Part shown: in pieces, positions 5,732-15,286 of the stretch
Position numbering within the stretch: position 1 is the first letter of the stretch
How the letters are laid out: each line of letters opens with the position of its first letter
Assembly (NCBI GenBank): GCA_030147525.1
Contig: JASBVF010000019.1
Coordinates: 1-58,024 of the forward strand
Direction of reading: 5' to 3'
Source of the DNA: Bacteroidota bacterium
Lineage (GTDB): Bacteria > Bacteroidota > Bacteroidia > Chitinophagales > Saprospiraceae
Length of the DNA stretch: 58,024 bases
Made by a program: the position numbers and the translations under genes
The notes under the pieces: model-generated
Database searches by the model: none
Told to the model about the DNA's origin: nothing
The model's input: only the letters and a program-made list of their open reading frames with translations

Positions 5732-6906
5732 ATACCATAATTGTCAACATTCAGAAAGAAGGTGCCGCCGGTGGCGCCGCCAGTGATGACGTTTCTGCCG
5801 CCTGCGACTTTGATGATGTTCTCACCTCTGAAGGTCTTGCTGTCTGTGAAATATTTTAAGCTGATTTCGTTGCCTTCGGCGTCCGTAAAAATCAGCATGT
5901 GATCCGTTTGAGAAGGATGTCCGCTCAGGGCATAACCAGTCAGTACAAACTTGCCGTCCGCATTTTCTGCGATGGACTGGCCGTCATTAAAAAAATCGGC
6001 ATCGCCAACTTCTTTTTCCCAGATTAATTCGCCGTTTGTATCGGTTTTAATCAGCACCACGAGGGCAGAGTCGATGGCGTTGGAGCCGGTTGTCTGGTGT
6101 GCGTATCTTCCGACCGTCAGCAGGTTGCCGTCGTGCAGTTGAATGGTGCTTCTGCCGACTCCCGGATTTGGCCCGTAGGTTTTTAGCCAGAGCTGATTGG
6201 CAGCCTGGTCGAAGCAGGTCAATTTTATTATTTCGTCATATCCTGTGATCAGGATGTTTCCGTTTTGGAGGACCAGCATGCCCGAGGGCGTGTTGTGTTT
6301 TGGCGAGTTTATGGTTTTGAACATCAGTTCCTGCCCGAGGGTGTCTATCTTCAGGAAAATCAGGTCCGTGTTTCTTGAGCCGCTGATAATGATTTCATTT
6401 TCACTGAGGCCGCTGATGTGGTAACCGGTGATGCTTTCCTGTTCGTGATAAGTTTTTTCCCAGATCACATTGCCGTTCTTGTCGAGTTTTGCGGCTGAAA
6501 GTCTTCTGTTTTCGTATGGATTCTCGGCATAGGTGTAGCCGGTCACGTAGATGTTTTGCGCATCATCTTCAAAAACGCCCAGCGCCTTGCTGTGGACCTG
6601 GTGAAACAGGGTTGAAAAAATGATTTCTCCGGCCGTGTCTGTTTTTAAAAGGAGCATTTGCCGGTTGCCGTATCTGTTGCTCCCGACAGTGATTACATTG
6701 CCGTCGGCGGAAAGCACGGTGGAGCTGTGCCAGACTCCGAGAAAGCCATCCAAAATTTTATAGTCCGCTATTTCTTCGACCGGACAATTATTGCAGCCGG
6801 GGTTGGAAGGATTAGAAGGGGTAGTGGGGATGACCGGGGCGTCATCTGCTTTGTTGCACCCGATGGTGATGATCAAAAGCGCTATAAAAAATCCGGTTTT
6901 GTTCAT
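5725..6906 (-). CDS. Lipoprotein with beta-propeller-like repeats
   Basis: The 393-residue product starts with a lipoprotein signal (MNKTGFFIALLIITIGC) followed by a Pro/Ser/Asn-rich linker and a CNNC pair. The rest consists of roughly seven to eight repeats of the type LLLKTDTAGEIIFSTLF, AAKLDKNGNVIWEKTY and IKTDTNGELIWEKEV, each about 45-50 residues and typical of propeller proteins in Bacteroidota. There is no T9SS tail, so it is likely held by its lipid anchor. The biological role and ligand are unknown. Confidence 0.75.
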   Translation of the reverse strand: MNKTGFFIALLIITIGCNKADDAPVIPTTPSNPSNPGCNNCPVEEIADYKILDGFLGVWHSSTVLSADGNVITVGSNRYGNRQMLLLKTDTAGEIIFSTLFHQVHSKALGVFEDDAQNIYVTGYTYAENPYENRRLSAAKLDKNGNVIWEKTYHEQESITGYHISGLSENEIIISGSRNTDLIFLKIDTLGQELMFKTINSPKHNTPSGMLVLQNGNILITGYDEIIKLTCFDQAANQLWLKTYGPNPGVGRSTIQLHDGNLLTVGRYAHQTTGSNAIDSALVVLIKTDTNGELIWEKEVGDADFFNDGQSIAENADGKFVLTGYALSGHPSQTDHMLIFTDAEGNEISLKYFTDSKTFRGENIIKVAGGRNVITGGATGGTFFLNVDNYGME

Positions 6907-6975
6907 TTTTTGATGTTGTTGTGTGTTGAGAGGATTGATGGAATTAAAAGTTTGTGGGTTGATGTCGCAAAACTC

Positions 6976-7318
6976 CTACCATTTTGCGCTCAAAAAGACC
7001 GTCGCAGAAAAAGTCATCGCAAGGAAACCCAGGTGCAACACCGGACGAATGCCCGGCCTGATCTTCCTGAAGTCTGCCCGGGTGAATTCTGCCAGTATGA
7101 CTCCCACCGAAATCAAAAGAAACCAGGTGGTAACGAAAGGCAGCGGTATTTTTCCATCATCCATGATGGCCATGGGGATCAGGTAAAAAATGTCATGTAA
7201 AAATCCGCAGGCGATAAAAGTGAGGATCAATGCAAACGGAGATGAAATAACTTTTCGCAAGGGGCTGTAGCAGTAGTATAAAAGAAAATAGCCATAGCCC
7301 GGGTTCCAGTACCACCAG
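6976..7318 (-). pseudogene. C-terminal part of an MBOAT-like acyltransferase split by the integrated element
   Basis: The reading frame is open upstream of any start codon, back to a stop near 7351. The coding part begins in the attL core with WWYWNPGYGYFLLYYCYSPL and continues through membrane helices containing CGFLHD, where the His matches the expected MBOAT catalytic His region. The missing N-terminal 37 codons are at 13320-13433 on the same strand. Joining the two at the 7-bp core restores one in-frame gene of 149 codons (KFWWYWNPG across the join). The similarity to MBOAT enzymes (FWxxW, then xxYxYxPL, then LH) is by eye, and the rebuilt protein is short for that family. Confidence 0.8.
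7312..7318. other. attL core (CCACCAG)
   Basis: The left crossover core lies inside the split acyltransferase gene. Element sequence to its right begins GACCCGAACC. The same 7 bp recurs at the right end, consistent with the 6-8 bp overlap region of tyrosine recombinases. Confidence 0.75.
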
Positions 7319-7436
7319 GACCCGAACCTTTGGTTTTCTTGGTTCTTTTCTTATTTCAAAAAGCCTTTATTATCAATGATTTATTAAGTGGAAATACCAA
7401 AGCGAATCAGAAAAGAATCACAGAAAAACAAAAAAA

Positions 7437-7460
7437 GTGTCAACCACAGTGTCAACCAAT
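7437..7460 (+). repeat. Left arm-type repeat pair (GTGTCAACCACA twice)
   Basis: Two tandem 12-bp copies: 7437-7448 is exact and 7449-7460 matches 10 of 12. An identical pair lies at the other end of the element in the same orientation. This is the pattern expected for integrase arm-binding sites. The copies end 14 bp before the integrase promoter box, so integrase could repress its own gene. Confidence 0.7.
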
Positions 7461-7473
7461 GACTTTAAAGACT

Positions 7474-7481
7474 TACTTTTG
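7474..7481 (+). promoter_or_regulatory. Bacteroidota -7 box (TACTTTTG) for the integrase gene
   Basis: TACTTTTG matches the Bacteroidota TAnnTTTG element and lies 35 bp before the integrase ATG. No clean TTG/TTTG -33 box is seen. That position is occupied by the arm repeats. Confidence 0.5.
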
Positions 7482-7516
7482 ACGTGCGAAACATTCATAA
7501 ATAAAAGCCGTGAATC

Positions 7517-8791
7517 ATGTCAAAAGTACGTTTCTACCTTAAAGCACCGGACGCCACCGGGGAAAGCTTAATCAGCCTTTATTTCAGTTACAATAAAAAA
7601 CGCCTGGTTTATTCCACCGGGGACAAAATCCCGCCGAAGTTCTGGAATGAGGAAACCCAACGGGCTATTAAGTCAAAAAAGCTATTTCCTCAATACCCCG
7701 ACCTAAATGCCCGCCTCGACAATCTTACCCACGAAACGTTGAGTATTTACCGCCGCTTCCTGAATGATGGAAAGGTCCCTTCCATTGCTCAATTTAAAAG
7801 CGAGCTGGACGCCTTTGCACTTCGGGGAGCCGTCGCCGGGGAAACTTCCCTTTTTGGCTTCATCGATCAATTCATCAAAGAACGGGCAGCCCTTCCAAAG
7901 TTTTCAAAAAGTACAATCAAGGTTTATCAAAGGACCTTAAAACACCTGCAAACCTTTTCAAAAAAGAATCACCGGCAATTGGATTTTCAGGACATAGACC
8001 TCGACTTCTTTTATGACTTTCAAAAATACCTTTATTCGCCGCCTGTCTCCTATGCTCAAAACACCGCTCAAAAGATCGTTAAAACCATCAAAACCATTCT
8101 CAACGAAGCAACGGACCGGGGACTAAATAAAAATCTTGCTTACCAAAGCCGCCGGTTTGGAATCCCGCAAAAGGAAGCGGAAAGCATTTATCTAACCAGT
8201 GACGAACTTTTGAAAATTTACCGCTTGAACCTTACCTACCTGCCCCGCCTCGACAAAGTGAGGGACTTGTTTTTGATTGGAGCCTTTACAGGATTGCGTT
8301 TTTCTGATTTCACGAACATAAAGCCGGAAAACATTAAAACCGTTGACGGGGTGGATGTTATCCAGATCACAACGAAGAAAACCGGGGAGCCTATTACCGT
8401 GCCTATTCACCCGATAGTGAAAGCCATTTTAGACAAGCATAATGGAAACACACCTGAGCCATTGAGTAGCCAAAAAATGAACGACTATTTAAAAGAATTG
8501 GCCGAACTCGCAGAACTAAACGAAACGATAATTTTAGCAAAGGACCGGGGAGGAAAACGGTATGACCGGCAGTACAAAAAATGGGAGTTGGTGACCTCGC
8601 ACACCGCCCGCCGCTCGTTTGCCACCAACGCATTTAAAGCGGGTATTCCTGCCATTTCAATAATGAAGATCACCGGCCACCGTACCGAAGCCGCATTTAT
8701 GAAATACATCAAAATTTCAAAGGAAGAAAACGCCGTTTTGATCTCTCAAAATGCCTTTTTCAAAACGTCACCACTGAAAGCAGTGAGATAG
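7517..8791 (+). CDS. Tyrosine-type site-specific integrase
   Basis: A 424-residue Bacteroidota-type tyrosine recombinase with an N-terminal arm-binding domain (about 1-100), a SAM-like core-binding domain (about 105-210) and a C-terminal catalytic domain (about 220-410). The catalytic set is complete: R261 (TGLRFSD), H362 and R365 (HTARR), H388 (TGHR) and nucleophile Y397 (KYIKI). It is the first gene inside the left end of the element and faces inward. It is predicted to recombine the 7-bp CCACCAG core. The chromosomal target is the short acyltransferase gene. Confidence 0.93.
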   Translation: MSKVRFYLKAPDATGESLISLYFSYNKKRLVYSTGDKIPPKFWNEETQRAIKSKKLFPQYPDLNARLDNLTHETLSIYRRFLNDGKVPSIAQFKSELDAFALRGAVAGETSLFGFIDQFIKERAALPKFSKSTIKVYQRTLKHLQTFSKKNHRQLDFQDIDLDFFYDFQKYLYSPPVSYAQNTAQKIVKTIKTILNEATDRGLNKNLAYQSRRFGIPQKEAESIYLTSDELLKIYRLNLTYLPRLDKVRDLFLIGAFTGLRFSDFTNIKPENIKTVDGVDVIQITTKKTGEPITVPIHPIVKAILDKHNGNTPEPLSSQKMNDYLKELAELAELNETIILAKDRGGKRYDRQYKKWELVTSHTARRSFATNAFKAGIPAISIMKITGHRTEAAFMKYIKISKEENAVLISQNAFFKTSPLKAVR

Positions 8792-8913
8792 TTTTTTTGA
8801 GCATACACCAAGCACTGAGAAAGCGAAAGAAGGGAGTTTGAAGAAAGCCCCGCCCGGTTTTACTTGCAGGTTCCACCGGGACGGGGAAAACGTTAATTTA
8901 ATTCATCAAAATT

Positions 8914-10065
8914 ATGGAAAATGTAACGAACCGCCACACGTTGCACACTTCGGACATTTACGCCGAACATTTCAACGCCTTCCAACAATCACAGTTTTTC
9001 CAAGAACTCGAAAGGAAGTTTGCACCGCTACCGTATTACCTGAAATTTCGACCGCTTCAACGGATTGCGCTTTTCACCTCGTTTTTGTTCAATGGCTTTT
9101 CAGCCCTTACCGCTTCAACCCTGGTTTTCTTTTTCGTGGAAAGCATGACCGGCCACCGGGGAGCCGCCGCCGCCGTCACCGTTTGCGCCCTTGCGGTTTT
9201 GGAACTGAGTAAACGGAAAACGGGGAGCCTGTTTTTTAAAGATTGGCTTCAATTCAGGAAGGCAAGCGCCGGACTTGCGGCCCTGGTTGTTTTGTTGGCC
9301 GGCCTTTCGGTTTCGTCTTCTTACTTCGGAGCTAAACAGTTGGTGACGCAATTCACGCCGCCGCCCGCCCTGGAAGATGCCACCGCCGCCGCCGCTCCGA
9401 TCCGTGACCAATTGGCCGAAATTGACCGGCAGATCGAAAAGCACCTGAGCAATAAAAACGACCGGGGGGAGGTGTACGTCCGAAGTCAGCGAGCCGCCGA
9501 AAGTTTGACCAAGCAGAAAGAAACGCTTTTAGCGCAATGGGTGAACATCGAAAACAGGACGGCCACCAAGAACGAAACGACCGCCGCCGCCCACCTCGAA
9601 CAAACGAGCCTGAACGCTGAACACTTCGCCGCCGTCACCCTGCTTTTAGAATTGCTGTTTCTGTTATGCGCTTACTATCTGGAATACTTCGATTTTAGGA
9701 GTTTCACTGAGTTTGCCGGACCTGCTGAAATAGCAATTGATGACAAAACGAATTTTGCATATACAAAACCGGGGGGACCGTCACAGCCTGCAAAGCCGGC
9801 CACCGATAACAGGAAGCCGGACGGGAAAAATGCCACCGGGAAAACGCCGGAAATTGCCCCAAACGGAAAGCCATTGAACGGTAAAACCATCCACCTAAAC
9901 GCCACGTCCGAAGATGCTATTCAGAAAGCAATCAAACACGTGAAAGGAAGGATTGCCAGTGCCGCCCACCGTTTGCGGAATGGCATAGGCCGCCCGGAAA
10001 CGAGCAAAGCGAACATAGAACACCACACCGCCGAACTTCGGGAACTGGAAGCCATGCTTTCGTGA
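8914..10065 (+). CDS. Element-encoded membrane protein with central coiled coil
   Basis: This 383-residue protein is not recognised. Two hydrophobic segments near 65-120 and another near 125-150 are followed by a soluble alpha-helical stretch (about 165-235) containing IRDQLAEIDRQIEKHLSNK, then a further membrane helix (about 240-265) and a Pro/Lys/Gly-rich tail ending in a short helical region. The layout (N-terminal helices, coiled coil, late helix, charged cytoplasmic tail) suggests a membrane-bound assembly or sensing protein. It lacks Walker motifs, so it is not a typical coupling protein or Zot ATPase. As the largest non-core gene it is the best candidate for element-specific cargo. Confidence 0.75.
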   Translation: MENVTNRHTLHTSDIYAEHFNAFQQSQFFQELERKFAPLPYYLKFRPLQRIALFTSFLFNGFSALTASTLVFFFVESMTGHRGAAAAVTVCALAVLELSKRKTGSLFFKDWLQFRKASAGLAALVVLLAGLSVSSSYFGAKQLVTQFTPPPALEDATAAAAPIRDQLAEIDRQIEKHLSNKNDRGEVYVRSQRAAESLTKQKETLLAQWVNIENRTATKNETTAAAHLEQTSLNAEHFAAVTLLLELLFLLCAYYLEYFDFRSFTEFAGPAEIAIDDKTNFAYTKPGGPSQPAKPATDNRKPDGKNATGKTPEIAPNGKPLNGKTIHLNATSEDAIQKAIKHVKGRIASAAHRLRNGIGRPETSKANIEHHTAELRELEAMLS

Positions 10066-10098
10066 AAATTCATTTCATAACTTTTAAAATTCAATGCC

Positions 10099-10350
10099 AT
10101 GCAAAACAACGCAACCGCAAAACCGGCCCCGGCTGAAATTCTGGAAGAATTGACAGATTGGGGAATTACTGAGTTTAGGGAATTGCTTACCGACCTGTTT
10201 TCTTCCTATGTATGTACCAAAGAATGGGAAGAATGTACTGATGAATGGAAAGGTGACGTAACTACCCGCTACCGCATCATTAACCGCTTTTTTGACAAGG
10301 CCGAAGCATGGGAGAGTGACCGGATGAACGGCCCGCAGGTAGTAAACTGA
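10099..10350 (+). CDS. Small acidic protein of unknown function
   Basis: An 83-residue, Trp- and Glu-rich, mostly helical protein starting MQNNATAKPAPAEILEEL. It has no membrane segment or known motif. It starts 33 bp after the membrane protein gene and is followed within a few bases by a strong terminator, so the two genes probably share a transcript that ends here. Functions such as an anti-host or regulatory peptide are possible but unsupported. Confidence 0.65.
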   Translation: MQNNATAKPAPAEILEELTDWGITEFRELLTDLFSSYVCTKEWEECTDEWKGDVTTRYRIINRFFDKAEAWESDRMNGPQVVN

Positions 10351-10354
10351 AAAC

Positions 10355-10391
10355 AAAAACCCTGTCAGATGGTGAAATGACAGGGTTTTTT
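10355..10391 (+). terminator. Rho-independent terminator
   Basis: AAAAACCCTGTCA (10355-10367) pairs with TGACAGGG followed by six Ts (10378-10391). The loop is about 10 nt. It directly follows the 10099-10350 stop and splits the element into an upstream and a downstream transcription unit. Confidence 0.85.
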
Positions 10392-10423
10392 AAATTTGTA
10401 GAAAATCAAAATACGTTTAAGCT

Positions 10424-11389
10424 ATGACAAAGATAAAAACCGAATCGGAATTCAGGTTTGAATTTCGGGCATACTGCAAAGCATCCGCAGCGTTTCAAGC
10501 CTCCGACGAAAAACACGAACTTTCAAGCCTTGAAAATGACCTGCCGGAACGATCCGCTAAGGCCCTCCGAAAGTTCTACAAAAAGGCCGGTAAACGCATT
10601 ATGGAAGATGAACGATACCGGCAGGCCAAGCGGAATGTTTCCGTCCTTCCATTTGACATAGCTTTTGACGCAATCGAAACACCCGCTACCGTCGCCGCTT
10701 ATGTAAGCAACCCAATTTACATGGAAAAGGAATCTGAATTGGCAGGAAAGGAGGTATTTGTAAGCGACCCTAACCCGCTATTTTGGAAGCTGGAAGCAAC
10801 ACCTTATTTCAGCGACTTCATTTATCTGGAGCGGAAACAAATAGTTTTAGCCTGGATAGGGGAGCGATTGAAAGTACTGAATGAAAGCGACCTGCCCGCC
10901 GGCGCAATTTCTACCGATGACAAAGCAGCCCCGGCCACCAGGGAGCCTGAGAGCCAGACCACCGTAAATGCTCCGATCGATGGAAAGGAAGCCCCGGCCA
11001 CCGGCCCGGCAGATCAAAACCCGCTTTCTGTACTCTCACAAAGGCAATTGGCCCTTTGGGTTTATTACCGGCAACATCGGGAAGCTAAAGAGATGGAAGA
11101 TTTTGAAAACATGGGATTTCCTACTAAGAAAAAAGCCATTTTTTCATTTGCTGAAAGCATCCCAAAAGCAGACGGTTCAAAAAGGAGTGGTCAGCGTTTT
11201 GAAGATGAATGGAGAAACCTAGATAAAAAATGGTTGGATGAGTATAAGGAGGAAACTAAGCTCAAAAACTTTGAAGCTCCAACAATAGAAAATGAGGAAG
11301 ATCACCGGGAAATTTTGAAGCATTTAGAACCAAGCTCAAAGGCTTATGGACTTGCCAATGAAACACTTGAAAAAATAGTCACCCCGTGA
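10424..11389 (+). CDS. Element protein of unknown function with Ala/Pro linker
   Basis: This 321-residue soluble protein has two helical regions (about 1-165 and 200-321) joined by a linker in which a motif is duplicated (KAAPATREPES and KEAPATGPADQ). The second region contains LSQRQLALWVYYRQHREAKEM, suggestive of a helical DNA- or protein-binding domain, but no family is recognised. The C-terminal part is highly charged. The stop lies within the first copy of a tandem palindromic repeat, so the end of the gene overlaps a possible control site for the excisionase-like gene. Confidence 0.7.
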   Translation: MTKIKTESEFRFEFRAYCKASAAFQASDEKHELSSLENDLPERSAKALRKFYKKAGKRIMEDERYRQAKRNVSVLPFDIAFDAIETPATVAAYVSNPIYMEKESELAGKEVFVSDPNPLFWKLEATPYFSDFIYLERKQIVLAWIGERLKVLNESDLPAGAISTDDKAAPATREPESQTTVNAPIDGKEAPATGPADQNPLSVLSQRQLALWVYYRQHREAKEMEDFENMGFPTKKKAIFSFAESIPKADGSKRSGQRFEDEWRNLDKKWLDEYKEETKLKNFEAPTIENEEDHREILKHLEPSSKAYGLANETLEKIVTP

Positions 11390-11422
11390 CCCGGTTTTCA
11401 GTCACCCCGTGACCCGGTTTTT
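11377..11422. promoter_or_regulatory. Tandem 23-bp palindromic repeat, possible operator
   Basis: Two head-to-tail copies (11377-11399 and 11400-11422) differ only at the last base. Each contains the dyad GTCAC-CCC-GTGAC followed by CCGG and a T run. The pair lies at the end of the unknown-function gene and about 50 bp before the excisionase-like HTH gene. It could bind that regulator (inference), or the T runs could make it an attenuator. Confidence 0.5.
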
Positions 11423-11469
11423 CTGTTTTTCCTACCCTCAAATTTGCTCCGAATCAAATAATTATCACA

Positions 11470-11781
11470 ATGGAGCAAGTATTATTTTCAATCAATTTGA
11501 GAGACTTTGAAGCCCTTCAACGGCAGTGGATGAGAGAGGAAGCCGCCAAAGCCATTGAAGCCGCCCTTCCACAAATTCAGGGTGAATTTTCCGACCTGCC
11601 GGAATTGATGACCCGCAAACAGGCCGCCGCCGTTATCGGGGTTTCCCTGGGAACCCTCGACAGTTGGGCGAAGGAAGGCCGCCTTACCAAAGTCAGAGCC
11701 GGGGGAATTGTCCGCTTTCGGAAAGATGAACTTTTGGCGAATTTCAAAAGCCTGAGAGATAGCCGCTACCAACGTGTGTAA
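11470..11781 (+). CDS. Excisionase-like helix-turn-helix protein
   Basis: A 103-residue protein with a C-terminal MerR/excisionase-type HTH (about 47-95): LMTRKQAAAVIGVSLGTLDS, then WAKEGRLTKVRAGGIVRFRKDELLA. This is the HTH_17 layout found in Xis and AlpA-like proteins. The N-terminal 45 residues form a helix. It lies upstream of the winged-helix and replication genes. It probably directs excision and may regulate the replication operon, as such proteins often do both. Confidence 0.8.
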   Translation: MEQVLFSINLRDFEALQRQWMREEAAKAIEAALPQIQGEFSDLPELMTRKQAAAVIGVSLGTLDSWAKEGRLTKVRAGGIVRFRKDELLANFKSLRDSRYQRV

Positions 11782-11800
11782 CCTCAAAAAGAAAATCAAA

Positions 11801-12178
11801 ATGCAACAGCTTGAATTATTCCAGCCATTGCCGCAGCCTGAGCGCCTGGAAAGAACGATCCGGCGAAGGGGTAGAAACATTGCGGCCACGTCCATTTTAT
11901 CACATAGGGAAGAAAAGGAGAAAGGCACGTTTTCAGCCCTCGAAGCCGGGATTTTGAAACAACTGGCAGACGGTAGGCCACGAACCCGCCGCCAATTGGC
12001 TAAGGCCCTGGGAAAAGAGCCGTCCGGTATTTGCCAAGCCGTGAAAAGCCTGGTTGACCGGGGAGAGATAGCCGTTTCTACCATTGCCAAGTGTCCAACG
12101 ACAGGTAAGGCCGTCCGTTGGTTTGTTCGCTGCCTGAGTAGGCCGAAAAGCCCGCAGGCTAAAACATTGGAGCCATGA
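11801..12178 (+). CDS. Small winged-helix DNA-binding protein
   Basis: The ATG at 11801 is preferred because the earlier GTG at 11774 overlaps the upstream gene. The 125-residue product has an N-terminal basic segment (RTIRRRGRN) and a winged-helix-like domain (about 45-105: LEAGILKQLADGRPRTRRQL, followed by SGICQAVKSLVDRGEI). The pattern resembles DNA-binding wHTH modules used in phage and plasmid control. Its stop overlaps the start of the replication gene by 4 bp (ATGA), so the two are translationally coupled. Confidence 0.7.
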   Translation: MQQLELFQPLPQPERLERTIRRRGRNIAATSILSHREEKEKGTFSALEAGILKQLADGRPRTRRQLAKALGKEPSGICQAVKSLVDRGEIAVSTIAKCPTTGKAVRWFVRCLSRPKSPQAKTLEP

Positions 12179-12993
12179 AAGATCAAGGTTGGATTAAATT
12201 ACATCGTTCAATCAAGATGAACAGCATCTATCAAGACAGGGAACCGTTTTGCAAACGTGCCGCATGGATGGACATTTTACTTGAAGTGAATCACAGCGCC
12301 GCAAACGTGCTGATAGGTGGACGTGAAATAGTCTGCAATCCGGGGGAAAGCCTAAACAGCCTTGACACCTGGGCGCAACGCTGGAGATGGGACAAATCAA
12401 AAGTCAGACGGTTTTTCAAGATGTTACACAGCCTGAGAATGATTGAAACCAAAAGCGAATCAAAAACGACACGGCTAACTGTCTGTAATTGGGAGAGTTA
12501 TCAGCATGACCGACACGACAGCGACACGATACCGACACGACAGCGACACGACAGCGACACGATACCGACACCAAACAAGAATGAAAAGAATAACAAGAAT
12601 GAAAAGAATGAAACAACTACGTCAACGACAGCGCCGAAGCCGCCGCCGGAAAATTTCGATCAATGGATTGAGCAGATAAAAGCGGATGAACTTTTCCGGG
12701 AACAGGTAGCCAGACAGCACCAAGTTTTTCTACCCGGCGAATTTGAAAATTTATTGAATGAATTCGTTTCGCATAAGCAAGCCCTGGGAGAGCTAAATCA
12801 TAAATCATTTACAGACTTCCGGCGAAATTTTTTGTACTGGATACCGAAAAACCTGGAAGCGAAGAAAAGCAGTAAAAGCAACAACGGTAAAACCCGCCAA
12901 CATTCTAACCTGATTGACGAAGAAACCGCCCGGCGTGTGTTTGCCAGAGTGACAGAAAACGACAGATTACCGGAAAAAAACAACTTCTATTGA
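12175..12993 (+). CDS. Phage-type replication initiator with in-gene iteron array
   Basis: The N-terminal half (MKDQGWIKLHRSI, WMDILLEVNHSAANVLIGG, SLDTWAQRWRWDKSKVRRFF) matches the winged-helix replisome-organiser domain of phage and plasmid initiators. The middle (about 108-155) is low complexity and is encoded by 11-bp tandem repeats, giving an HDSDTIPT repeat followed by a Lys/Asn/Glu stretch. The C-terminal part (about 165-272) is helical with an FxxxFVSHKQALGELNHKSF segment like DnaD/loader-binding tails. Its role is predicted to be opening the element's origin and loading host helicase. The layout is close to lambda O, where the origin lies within the initiator gene. Confidence 0.8.
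   Translation: MKDQGWIKLHRSIKMNSIYQDREPFCKRAAWMDILLEVNHSAANVLIGGREIVCNPGESLNSLDTWAQRWRWDKSKVRRFFKMLHSLRMIETKSESKTTRLTVCNWESYQHDRHDSDTIPTRQRHDSDTIPTPNKNEKNNKNEKNETTTSTTAPKPPPENFDQWIEQIKADELFREQVARQHQVFLPGEFENLLNEFVSHKQALGELNHKSFTDFRRNFLYWIPKNLEAKKSSKSNNGKTRQHSNLIDEETARRVFARVTENDRLPEKNNFY
12511..12618. other. Candidate replication origin: 11-bp iterons plus A-rich region
   Basis: Six contiguous 11-bp units start at 12511. Units 1, 3 and 4 read CGACACGACAG, units 2 and 5 read CGACACGATAC, and unit 6 (ending 12576) is degenerate. An A-rich stretch with a repeated AAGAATGAAAAGAAT word follows to about 12618. Direct iterons spaced at one helical turn next to an easily melted region, inside an initiator gene, is the classic theta-origin layout (compare lambda ori in gene O). 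Confidence 0.65.
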
Positions 12994-13133
12994 ACTGGAA
13001 TACATCCCGCCGGGGAGGGGGTGTTTAAATCTCTAAGCTGAACGCCGCCAACATCGCAGCCCCAACCTTGTGTGTGCATCGCCTATAATTTTGGGTAGGG
13101 GGGGGTAATTCGCCTGGAATCTCTATTTTTGTC

Positions 13134-13192
13134 AAGCCGTTCGCAAGTGGAATGTTTCGCACCTTATCCACGGCTTTAATTGCGAACGGCTT
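13134..13192. other. Large double-stem hairpin near the element's right end
   Basis: A perfect 13-bp stem (13134-13146 with 13180-13192, AGCCGTTCGCAA / TTGCGAACGGCT) encloses an inner 5-bp stem (GTGGA 13147-13151 / TCCAC 13167-13171) and is followed by a T run. It could be the terminator of the replication operon, but the internal structure also suits a structured RNA or single-strand origin. The rest of 12994-13319 holds no gene. It has a G-rich run at 13096-13106 and a weak TAATTTTG box at 13086-13093. Confidence 0.6.
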
Positions 13193-13225
13193 TTTTATTG
13201 CCCGCCGCCGTGAATCTTAAATGAA

Positions 13226-13249
13226 GTGTCAACCACAGTGTCAACCACA
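13226..13249 (+). repeat. Right arm-type repeat pair (GTGTCAACCACA twice)
   Basis: Two exact tandem 12-bp copies at 13226-13237 and 13238-13249, in the same orientation as the left pair at 7437-7460. They lie about 70 bp inside the attR core. They are probably integrase arm-binding sites. Confidence 0.7.
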
Positions 13250-13319
13250 TTATAAAAACAAAAGAAAAACCCTCGTAATTCGCTGATTTACAAGGGTTTT
13301 CTAATTTTTGCGGGTGGTC

Positions 13320-13326
13320 CCACCAG
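13320..13326. other. attR core (CCACCAG)
   Basis: This is the right crossover core. Element sequence GGTC lies to its left and host coding sequence AACTTCCGC to its right. Confidence 0.75.
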
Positions 13327-13433
13327 AACTTCCGCAACGAACTTGCCTTGAATGGTTTGGTTAACATCTTTTGAAAGACTTTCAAAGGATCGATTGTTCC
13401 CATTCTGTATTGGATGTATTCCTCGACGGTCAT
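13320..13433 (-). pseudogene. N-terminal part of the split MBOAT-like acyltransferase
   Basis: It starts with ATG at 13433 (MTVEEYIQYRMGTIDPLKVF) and is host coding sequence through KFW at the attR core. The frame then runs on into element DNA to a stop at 13176, giving an 85-residue chimeric peptide whose last 48 residues are not from the original gene. The C-terminal part of the gene is at 6976-7318. The intact enzyme is presumably lost while the element is integrated and restored on precise excision. Confidence 0.8.
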
Positions 13434-13542
13434 TGGTTTAGTGTTTTGTGCCTTGCACGGGCAATTGTTTGGCGTGGGGTTGAGAGGGGGTGAGTCTGTA
13501 TCAAAAGATAACGCAGAGAAATTTGAAAAAACTATTGTTTGG

Positions 13543-13649
13543 TCTCCCGCACCTGCCTGTCGGCAGACAGGGATTCTGCAGATTCACACAGATTTTTTTT
13601 TGAAAATCGCCCGAATCAATCTGCGAAAATTTGCGAGATCTGCGGGAGA
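13543..13649. repeat. Intergenic inverted repeat (TCTCCCGC...GCGGGAGA) with inserted mini-hairpin
   Basis: The left arm TCTCCCGC (13543-13550) continues at 13573-13594 after a small hairpin insert (13551-13572, CCTGTC-GGCA-GACAGG). The right arm is 13618-13649 (AATCTGCG...ATCTGCGGGAGA). The same family, without the insert, occurs at 27276-27364. The surrounding 13434-13703 has no credible gene. Confidence 0.6.
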
Positions 13650-13703
13650 ATGACTTATGATTCAGCCTCGGCACGCAGCATAAAATCGCCGGAAAACGCA
13701 GCA

Positions 13704-13883
13704 TCACCTATCGCTTTTTTTAGGGTGAGGCGCCGCTTGTTTTTGTTCTTCCTGCAGCTGCGGGGTCGCTTGTTGCTGTATTTTTGCGACCAGCGCAAAG
13801 ACCTTTTTATAAGACTGTGATCCCAAAGCTTCAAGGATCAGGTTGGCCTCGTCGATCGTAACTTTTAATGTAATTTCTTTCAT
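13704..13883 (-). CDS. Short conserved-looking helical protein
   Basis: The ATG at 13883 gives a 59-residue protein: a short beta/alpha core (MKEITLKVTIDEANLILEAL, then KKVFALVAKIQQQ) and a Gln/Lys-rich tail. The compact amphipathic core looks like the small soluble proteins often found in Bacteroidota genomes, and the upstream extension of the frame is not needed. No function is assigned. Confidence 0.6.
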   Translation of the reverse strand: MKEITLKVTIDEANLILEALGSQSYKKVFALVAKIQQQATPQLQEEQKQAAPHPKKSDR

Positions 13884-14015
13884 GATGAATAAATTATTTG
13901 ACGTCCTTGGTTGTGAGGTGACCCGGTTTTGCATGACACCGTTTTCTGCACAATTTCTTCCTTCCTGAGTGGCCAGGTCATGTATCTGCCTACCTGCCTA
14001 CTGGCCTGCTTTCCA

Positions 14016-14276
14016 TCAGACCCCGTCACCGATGCCGTACTTTCTCCATAAAACACCGCCATACCTTTGGCCCAGAAAAAACGCAAGCACCATGAATACG
14101 TAGGTGTACCAGGCAAATCCGAGTCCGGAGAAAATACGCAGTGCAACGATCACCGGAACGGGCAGGTGAATAGCCAAAAACCAGGGAAGTGAAAACTTGC
14201 GCACCTGTGCACGCCAATATCCGAAAGGAATGTTCAACACAAAAACCACGAGGCTGATGATAACTAATTTCGTCAT
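14016..14276 (-). CDS. Small three-helix membrane protein
   Basis: Starting at the ATG at 14276, this 86-residue protein has three hydrophobic segments: LVIISLVVFVLNIPFGYW, LAIHLPVPVIVALRIFSGLG and WYTYVFMVLAFFLGQRYGG. It ends RKYGIGDGV. The motif pattern (IPFGYWR, HLPVP) looks like a conserved uncharacterised membrane family. An upstream extension of the frame to 14384 lacks hydrophobic or recognisable content and overlaps a hairpin, so the shorter start is preferred. Confidence 0.65.
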   Translation of the reverse strand: MTKLVIISLVVFVLNIPFGYWRAQVRKFSLPWFLAIHLPVPVIVALRIFSGLGFAWYTYVFMVLAFFLGQRYGGVLWRKYGIGDGV

Positions 14277-14827
14277 GTTGATCGTCTGTTTGTCCGGGCG
14301 GATCGGTCTGTGCCAATCTGCCGGACGAGTATATTCAAAAGATCCGGTATGCAAGAATACGGATTCAGCATGAAAGACCCGCAAAGAGCGTGTTTTTAGC
14401 GAAATAAGGTTGAAAATGGATGCTCAGGTGTGATTGAATGATTTGGCGACGCCTCCAATCTTCGATTTCAGCAGTCTCCGCAGGGCCACCCCAGCGAATG
14501 TCCGTGAAATGGAAAATATTAACAACACCAGGCTAACGGCAATCGGTAGTAGGGTCCAGACCCTACTCGATTCCATACAGGCCCTCATAGCAGGCTGCCG
14601 GCAGCGGTCCTACCTTTGTCATAGAAATTTAAACAATGAAAAATGGCTTGCGAAAATGCCCGGCATATCCGCAAACCGGCCTGATGGACAGAAGCAGTTT
14701 TTAAAAGTAGGTAAAGGTGGATGAGGTTTTAAAAATCAACTTTCATCAGCCATGACCGGAAGAACTTTCGAAGCTAACATCTCTGCAAAATCAGGCAACT
14801 TTCTTCATCATCTTAATTCATTTGATC
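14277..14827. other. Intergenic region with two hairpins and a promoter-like box
   Basis: No convincing gene. A hairpin at 14292-14326 (GTCCGG...CCGGAC), a perfect 9-bp stem at 14548-14567 (AGTAGGGTC-CA-GACCCTACT) and a TAnnTTTG-type box TACCTTTG at 14611-14618 are visible. ORF-like stretches here have poor composition and no recognisable motif. Confidence 0.5.
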
Positions 14828-15286
14828 ATGAAAACAATGACCATTCTCTGTACCTTATTCCTCCTTGCAAATATTACTTTTTCGCAAGACATCTCTTACG
14901 AGACCAATCAGGAGACGACTGCCATTTCCACTAAAAAAGATAAAAACGGGAAAACGGAGGCGCAAGTCAAAGACAGCAAGGCCTACCACCAGATGAAAAC
15001 AAAACAAACCCGAGAGTTTGAGGCCAGTCTGATGCAGCACCTGGCGGAAAACCTTGTGTATCCGGAAGCGATGGAAGACAAAGGAATCGAAGGAAAAGTT
15101 GTCATTTCAGTATCCATTTCATCCAGTGGGAAAGCGAAAAAGTACGCCATCGTCCAAAGCCTGAACCAGGCATTTGACGACGCAGTACTGGATGCTATGA
15201 AAAATTTTAAAGGGTTAAACCTTAAAAAAGGAGAGTACATAGGAGCTGCCCAAACGCAGGTGCCGCTGAAGTTCTCCCTGCGGTGA
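14828..15286 (+). CDS. Secreted TonB C-terminal-domain protein
   Basis: The ATG at 14828 begins a signal peptide (MKTMTILCTLFLLANITFSQ). A charged linker of about 55 residues follows, then a TonB_C-type domain (about 65-152): LVYPEAMEDKGIEGKVVISV, SSSGKAKKYAIVQSLNQAFD and ALDAMKN-like helix. It lacks the N-terminal membrane anchor and proline-rich span of a real TonB. It is therefore probably a periplasmic or cell-surface accessory protein using the TonB-C fold, as seen often in Bacteroidota. Confidence 0.78.
   Translation: MKTMTILCTLFLLANITFSQDISYETNQETTAISTKKDKNGKTEAQVKDSKAYHQMKTKQTREFEASLMQHLAENLVYPEAMEDKGIEGKVVISVSISSSGKAKKYAIVQSLNQAFDDAVLDAMKNFKGLNLKKGEYIGAAQTQVPLKFSLR

What the first reader, a model, noticed from the sequence alone, without database searches (positions are those of the whole stretch)
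6976..13433. A 6-kb element splits a membrane acyltransferase gene and should restore it on excision
The C-terminal part (6976-7318) and N-terminal part (13320-13433) of one minus-strand gene sit on opposite sides of the element. Joining them at the 7-bp CCACCAG core restores the exact reading frame (149 codons). This gives precise att sites and suggests a phase-like switch in which host enzyme function depends on element excision.
Basis: partly seen in the sequence, partly recalled or inferred. Interest (0 to 1): 0.78.

Follow-up and report, generated by a model that had tools for sequence, protein, structure and literature searches.

The report
tRNA-targeting element stranded in a gene
A small mobile DNA element whose relatives mostly insert at the ends of tRNA genes has here landed in a membrane-enzyme-like gene and split it in two; leaving would restore the gene, but nothing shows that the split is a deliberate switch.

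Summary
A 6,008-bp element lies between two copies of CCACCAG (7312-7318, 13320-13326), and joining its flanks gives one 149-codon frame. The joined protein keeps 14 of the 15 residues invariant in 11 short MBOAT-like homologues, whose frames are uninterrupted.

The "phase-like switch" is not supported. The integrase belongs to a family that mostly inserts at tRNA/tmRNA 3' ends: of 24 relatives with at least 9.7 kb of downstream sequence, 18 have an att repeat there, in one arrangement. One is a sibling element in the same genome, at tRNA-Arg(CCG).

The circle junction deduced here, TGGTC|CCACCAG|GACCCGAACC, is a tRNA 3' end. It matches a tRNA(CAT) gene of this genome over 16 unbroken bases (that gene is intact and unoccupied) and a relative's tRNA-Arg(CCT) at 21 of 22. 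The disrupted gene matches at 12 of 22: the 7-bp core and little else.

Best reading: integration at a secondary site, as shown for ICEBs1 in B. subtilis, broke a host gene. Excision should be precise and restore it, but is not demonstrated. A natural example of a known kind.

The parts
6976..7318 (-). C-terminal part (last base of codon 36, codons 37-149 and stop) of the split short MBOAT-like gene, including the core
   Evidence: frame continuous with 13320-13433 after removal of the element; carries W40 N41 P42 and H77 D78
7312..7318 (.). attL core CCACCAG (crossover inferred to lie in or at it)
   Evidence: exact 7-bp identity with 13320-13326; in the tRNA register it is acceptor stem plus first T-stem base
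7319..7332 (.). Element inner left end GACCCGAACCTTTG: tRNA T-arm-like remnant
   Evidence: same ACCCGAACCTTT in the attL of L130 (tmRNA site), CCCGAACC in L102 (tRNA-Val site)
7435..7458 (+). Left copy of AAGTGTCAACCACAGTGTCAACCA, probable integrase arm sites (role inferred)
   Evidence: exact copy at 13224; a different but equivalently placed repeat in the sibling L089
7517..8791 (+). Tyrosine integrase, 424 aa
   Evidence: Phage_int_SAM_5 9.5e-18, Phage_integrase 3.8e-11, Arm-DNA-bind_5 5.1e-7
8914..10065 (+). 383-aa protein with hydrophobic stretches (by eye), unknown function; 92% identical in the sibling element
   Evidence: no family above its cut-off
10099..10350 (+). 83-aa protein, unknown
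   Evidence: weak short matches only (RIIA.1-like 2.5e-4, below cut-off; DUF5053 0.09; phrog_1683 3.1e-4)
10424..11389 (+). 321-aa protein, unknown; residues 164-321 67% identical in the sibling
11470..11781 (+). Excisionase-like HTH protein, 103 aa
   Evidence: HTH_17 1.1e-7; TIGR01764 excise 2.2e-8 (above cut-off); phrog_66
11774..12178 (+). Winged-HTH-like protein, 134 aa
   Evidence: MarR_2 6.4e-5 (below cut-off); phrog_1123
12175..12993 (+). DnaD-like helicase loader / replication protein, 272 aa
   Evidence: phrog_2514 3e-30; DUF7833
13224..13247 (+). Right copy of the arm repeat
13312..13319 (.). Element inner right end GGGTGGTC: the CCA end, discriminator and first acceptor base of a tRNA plus 3 further bases
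   Evidence: with the core and the next G, 16 bases identical to the own tRNA(CAT) gene
13320..13326 (.). attR core CCACCAG
13320..13433 (-). N-terminal part (start to codon 38) of the split gene; as assembled it reads on into the element for 85 codons in all

Best explanation
A 6-kb integrative element of a mainly tRNA/tmRNA-3'-end-targeting tyrosine-integrase family has inserted at a secondary (off-target) site. Shown: element and exact ends, open integrase and excisionase-like genes, terminal repeats, tRNA-type attP, family preference for tRNA 3' ends, an intact unoccupied tRNA(CAT) gene with the matching 3' end in the same genome, and a split but otherwise undamaged short MBOAT-like gene. 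Inferred: Int paired its tRNA-type attP with CCACCAG in the codons of the conserved FWWYWNP motif (11 of 13 with the nearest flanks), knocking the gene out. Because the 7 bp are identical on both sides, Int plus the excisionase-like protein could excise precisely and restore the gene, probably less well than from a tRNA site. Gene restoration is a by-product of precise excision, not an evolved switch.
For:: 18 of the 24 relatives with at least 9.7 kb downstream (37 distinct integrases examined; 13 have less sequence) have an att repeat at a minus-strand tRNA/tmRNA 3' end (Arg, Val, Met, Ser, Cys, Glu, Asp, Leu, tmRNA); in 16 of these 18, attL and attR are identical at the seven bases where the window core falls (sibling L089 6 of 7, L121 5 of 7); sibling element in the same genome at tRNA-Arg(CCG); attP 22-mer, up to 3 mismatches, found twice in 7.08 Mb: attL itself and the tRNA(CAT) 3' end; reversed-pattern control 0; of 38 own tRNAs only this one has CCACCAG at the 3' end (19 of 22); among all window 22-mers, both strands, the best score against 30 of those 38 tRNA ends is 17, and it is attL itself; a relative's tRNA-Arg(CCT) matches attP at 21 of 22, the MBOAT-gene site at 12 of 22; no interrupted homologue among 11.
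Against: No read, PCR or population data: integration order and activity are inferred. 6 of the 24 relatives lack a demonstrated tRNA att repeat; L133 has arm repeats and a short repeat at a site where no tRNA was called (its smaller copy L097), so the family is not strictly tRNA-bound. In L089 and L121 the register is not fully identical, so the exact crossover may vary. The 7-bp core is undamaged and the gene halves show no decay, which a recent off-target event and a maintained reversible insertion predict alike. The native target is not settled: own tRNA(CAT), or a tRNA-Arg(CCT) of another host.
Confidence: 0.9

Rival explanations
1. Evolved phase-like switch: the element is maintained in the gene because regulated excision turns the acyltransferase-like gene on, like known phage regulatory switches.
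For: Precise in-frame restoration, conserved residues kept on both sides of the join, open integrase and excisionase-like genes.
Against: attP is a tRNA 3' end; the family sits mostly in tRNAs; no interrupted homologue among 11 short homologues; none of the 13 same-genus genomes searched gave the short gene, so no conserved association was seen.
Confidence: 0.04
2. Primary site in a protein gene: this integrase has evolved a new specificity for the conserved FW.YWNP motif of the MBOAT-like gene.
For: The core falls in one of the most conserved motifs of the gene, and GTnCCACCAGnAC is shared by attP and the gene.
Against: attP keeps TGGTC and ACCCGAACC, which match tRNA 3' ends and not the gene (12 of 22); a new primary specificity should show attP matching the gene beyond the core. 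Only one case was seen here.
Confidence: 0.05
3. Assembly artefact joining unrelated sequences.
For: The draft genome has 59 contigs.
Against: Both junctions lie inside one 58-kb contig, and both sides fit biologically (frame, terminal repeats, attP); an artefact would not give a tRNA-type attP and a restored 149-codon frame together.
Confidence: 0.01

Closest known systems
ICEBs1 of Bacillus subtilis in secondary attachment sites (PMC3715440; passages read)
   Same: Element whose primary attB is a tRNA gene; can insert in other genes at sites partly matching attB; 7-bp crossover region.
   Different: [quoted passage not shown] excision was reduced or eliminated from all secondary sites analysed there. 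Here a matching tRNA site is intact, the 7-bp core is fully identical, and no conjugation genes were found.
Sibling element at G000:C18 (L089), tRNA-Arg(CCG)
   Same: Integrase 71% identical, 383-aa protein 92%, excisionase-like 84%, p321 C-terminal half 67%, winged-HTH protein 50%; same layout of terminal repeats and ends.
   Different: About 8.4 kb between att repeats; sits at a tRNA 3' end; different replication-type gene position occupied by a 264-aa HTH-like protein, and a pentapeptide-repeat cargo.
Phage regulatory switches / active lysogeny (e.g. phiSa3int in S. aureus hlb, PMC6597384; search listing with start of abstract only)
   Same: An element splits a host gene, and the gene is restored on excision.
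   Different: By its abstract the hlb insertion is found in most S. aureus isolates; here one case, a tRNA-type attP, and no sign of recurrence.

Membership tests
tRNA-3'-end-targeting tyrosine-integrase elements | Tyrosine integrase with arm-binding, SAM-like and catalytic domains | tested here: met
tRNA-3'-end-targeting tyrosine-integrase elements | attP carries a tRNA 3' end | tested here: met
   19 of 22 to own tRNA(CAT), 21 of 22 to a relative's tRNA-Arg(CCT)
tRNA-3'-end-targeting tyrosine-integrase elements | Integrase relatives sit at tRNA/tmRNA 3' ends | tested here: met
   18 of 24 relatives with at least 9.7 kb downstream
tRNA-3'-end-targeting tyrosine-integrase elements | This copy sits in a tRNA gene | tested here: not met
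   no tRNA in the window; it is in a protein gene. The claim is therefore a relative of the family at a secondary site, not a member in its normal site
Phage regulatory switch / active lysogeny | Recurrent, conserved occupancy of the same host gene | tested here: not met
   11 short homologues, none interrupted by an element
Phage regulatory switch / active lysogeny | Regulated, reversible excision | not testable with these tools
   Needs reads, PCR or culture
Integrative conjugative/mobilizable element | Relaxase or conjugation genes | tested here: not met
   none of the 7 element proteins matches a relaxase or transfer family
Complete prophage | Capsid, terminase or tail genes | tested here: not met
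   integrase, HTH and DnaD-like families only, besides unknowns; the one packaging-class match is a weak match of the excisionase-like protein to a terminase small subunit family (phrog_57, 2.9e-5), weaker than its excisionase match (2.7e-9)
MBOAT acyltransferase (the split gene) | MBOAT profile match and conserved His | tested here: inconclusive
   E up to 0.01: MBOAT_2 in 12 of 12 and MBOAT in 10 of 12 aligned proteins, but the joined protein itself is below both curated cut-offs; H77 invariant; about 150 aa against 326-505 aa frames in the longer matches

The most novel reading that the evidence does not exclude
The insertion is a maintained, reversible on/off control of a short MBOAT-like acyltransferase by an element that switched from a tRNA target to this gene, keeping a fully identical 7-bp crossover so that excision stays precise.
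Probability: 0.05. Interest if true: 0.6.

Novelty: new member of a known kind. Interest (0 to 1): 0.33.

Why it matters
It is a natural, sequence-resolved case of a tRNA-targeting element caught at a secondary site in a genome whose matching tRNA site is intact. If it is what it seems, the off-target site confines the crossover to 7 bp (CCACCAG), tighter than most of the tRNA-site relatives allow (unbroken attL/attR identity there 10-55 bp, except 6 bp in L121). It also shows that precise restoration of a reading frame is not by itself evidence of a regulatory switch: the attP should be read first.

Tried and rejected
Rejected: evolved switch, new protein-gene specificity and assembly artefact (see rivals). 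A strict tRNA pattern found nothing in the own genome; the attP-based pattern did. The scan of genome contigs with the joined protein confirmed 1 relative out of 95 stretches. The 383-aa protein found no relative among viral contigs (19 stretches, none confirmed; single-protein query, close relatives only) and, among 298 family genomes, 11 besides the own with matches: the best by E-value 42% identical, two short stretches of 49 and 63 residues at 59% and 46%. Synteny: the flanking 696-aa kinase has a relative in 1 of the 13 other same-genus genomes (44% identity), so the empty locus could not be compared. PADLOC gave two weak matches among 8 proteins. Paper searches on satellites of Bacteroidota and on Bacteroidetes integrase cores listed nothing on this family by title; no wider claim of absence from print is made. 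No structure was predicted.

Counting notes. One search listed 48 integrase matches including the window's own; 35 of the other 47 were fetched and examined, 12 were not, several because their contig ends close by. Of 37 viral loci, 2 were put through. One search had 39 entries: the window, one integrase twice (L092 and L135), and 37 distinct relatives. Of the six without a demonstrated tRNA repeat, L126 and L131 have a minus-strand tRNA downstream but no repeat was found, and L117, L127, L133 and L053 have no tRNA called in the stretch. L136 (under 9.7 kb) has a repeat resembling a tRNA-Cys site at its contig end, not counted. In one search, 30 of the 38 own tRNA ends were used: 7 were out of register and one was a duplicate. 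The 14 'invariant' residues include the joined protein itself; the fair count without it is 14 of 15. One search stopped with an error after 12 of 18 rows; one search did the other 6. In one search, two homologues (L198, L200) are reported with one TGA; (as L015 and L012) their frames run uninterrupted to a stop at the C-terminal end, so I take the TGA to be the normal stop.
Full report
Observation. The 7-bp CCACCAG occurs at 7312-7318 and 13320-13326. Removing 7312-13319 leaves one 450-nt minus-strand frame of 149 codons plus stop. The 7-mer alone is no evidence (13 copies on the + strand of the window), but the joined protein aligns across the join with short homologues: 10 open frames of 146-178 aa among 395 genomes of the phylum and one in a MAG labelled Halanaerobiales. 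Of 15 residues invariant in these 11 homologues the joined protein keeps 14, three before the join and eleven at or after it; S27 is the exception. In the assembled genome the two halves are the only copies found.

The split gene. All 12 aligned proteins match Pfam MBOAT_2 and 10 of 12 match MBOAT at E up to 0.01, but the joined protein scores below both curated cut-offs. The family profile matches solved DGAT1 sequences over about 90 residues (9e-5). 'Membrane acyltransferase-like' is fair. It is a short stand-alone protein of about 150 aa, not a full MBOAT (326 to 505 aa frames in the longer matches). None of 13 same-genus genomes gave the short gene; one, G011, has a longer MBOAT match.

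The element. Six kilobases with seven genes: a tyrosine integrase (Arm-DNA-bind_5, Phage_int_SAM_5, Phage_integrase), a 383-aa protein with hydrophobic stretches, two unknown proteins, an excisionase-family HTH, a winged-HTH-like protein and a DnaD-like helicase loader. No relaxase and no structural phage family was matched, apart from a weak terminase-small-subunit match of the excisionase-like protein. It could be a phage-satellite-like or other dependent element; that is inference. A 24-bp direct repeat containing two GTGTCAACCA units lies just inside each end, as expected of arm-type integrase sites; that role is inferred.

Relatives give the target. The own genome holds a sibling element on contig C18 (integrase 71%, 383-aa protein 92%). 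Its terminal repeats are at L089:6875 and 15072, and its att repeat at the 3' end of a tRNA-Arg(CCG) gene. I then took 37 distinct integrase relatives: 35 of the 47 matches found in 298 genomes of the same family, the sibling included, and 2 of 37 viral loci. With a script I looked for direct repeats between the 600 bp upstream of the integrase and the sequence downstream. 24 had at least 9.7 kb downstream. 18 of these have a repeat at the 3' end of a minus-strand tRNA or tmRNA at the far end. Two more have a minus-strand tRNA but no repeat found. Four have no tRNA in the stretch. Lined up on the tRNA, the seven bases where the window core falls are identical between attL and attR in 16 of the 18; the sibling L089 has 6 of 7 and L121 5 of 7. 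This register starts 179-243 bp upstream of the integrase in the relatives and 205 bp in the window.

The window's own attP is a tRNA end. Joining the element's inner ends through the core gives TGGTC|CCACCAG|GACCCGAACC. With up to three mismatches this 22-mer occurs twice in the 7.08-Mb genome: once as attL itself and once exactly at the 3' end of a tRNA with anticodon CAT, C14:2259-2332. The reversed control pattern gave none. There the identity is 16 unbroken bases, GGGTGGTCCCACCAGG. Among 38 own tRNAs it is the only one with CCACCAG at its 3' end and the best match, 19 of 22. Scanning all 22-mers of the window on both strands against 30 of those tRNA ends, the highest score is 17, and it is attL. 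A relative's tRNA-Arg(CCT) site (L115) matches attP at 21 of 22, so the native target could be tRNA(CAT) here or tRNA-Arg(CCT) in a former host; own tRNA-Arg(CCT) lacks the core. The own tRNA(CAT) gene is called intact. An element would lie on its low side, where a 584-aa frame starts 156 bp away; no integrase of this family was found on contig C14. Only the first 4.5 kb of that contig were inspected.

The gene site matches attP poorly: 12 of 22, made of the core, the pattern GTnCCACCAGnAC (11 of 13) and one more base. Within the window that pattern occurs only at the two ends. The element's TGGTC and ACCCGAACC, which match tRNA ends, find little in the gene. This is what secondary-site integration looks like.

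Mechanism and limits. Shown: ends, frame, family preference, attP type, free tRNA site, open integrase and excisionase-like genes. Inferred: the integrase accepted the gene site by the 7-bp core; excision is possible because the overlap is identical on both sides, and would restore the gene. In ICEBs1, excision from secondary sites was reduced or eliminated at all sites analysed (PMC3715440, passages read); lower excision here is expected by analogy, not shown. Gene halves without added damage fit a recent event but do not prove it.

Verdict on the switch. It needs the gene to be a recurrent or selected site. None of 11 short homologues is interrupted; a second search in 92 genomes of one family re-found 7 of them, again without an element in the gene, and no others. 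The gene itself is patchy. The switch is left at about 5%.

Noticed in passing
L008-L017, L007: A family of stand-alone proteins of about 150 aa that covers only the conserved-His part of MBOAT acyltransferases, with invariant W..WNP and HD motifs; whether such a short protein can be an enzyme or needs a partner is open.
   Followed up: partly
L089 (G000:C18:3000-21000), about 6747-15170: Sibling element at a tRNA-Arg(CCG) 3' end with a 573-aa pentapeptide-repeat protein, a DUF5681 protein and a 264-aa HTH-like protein where the window element has its DnaD-like gene.
   Followed up: partly
L097/L133 (G016:C9): An integrase relative with arm repeats and a short repeat GCCCCGATGGG[A/G]CTAT at a site where no tRNA was called: another possible non-tRNA insertion of the family.
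   Followed up: partly
window 11377-11421: Two tandem copies of AGTCACCCCGTGACCCGGTTTT between the 321-aa gene and the excisionase-like gene; possibly an operator or terminator pair.
   Followed up: no
window 12511-12571: Tandem 11-bp repeats (CGACACGACAG type) inside the DnaD-like gene, giving an RHDSDT-like linker.
   Followed up: no
G000:C54:8897-10039: A third, distant integrase (25% identity) in the same genome.
   Followed up: no
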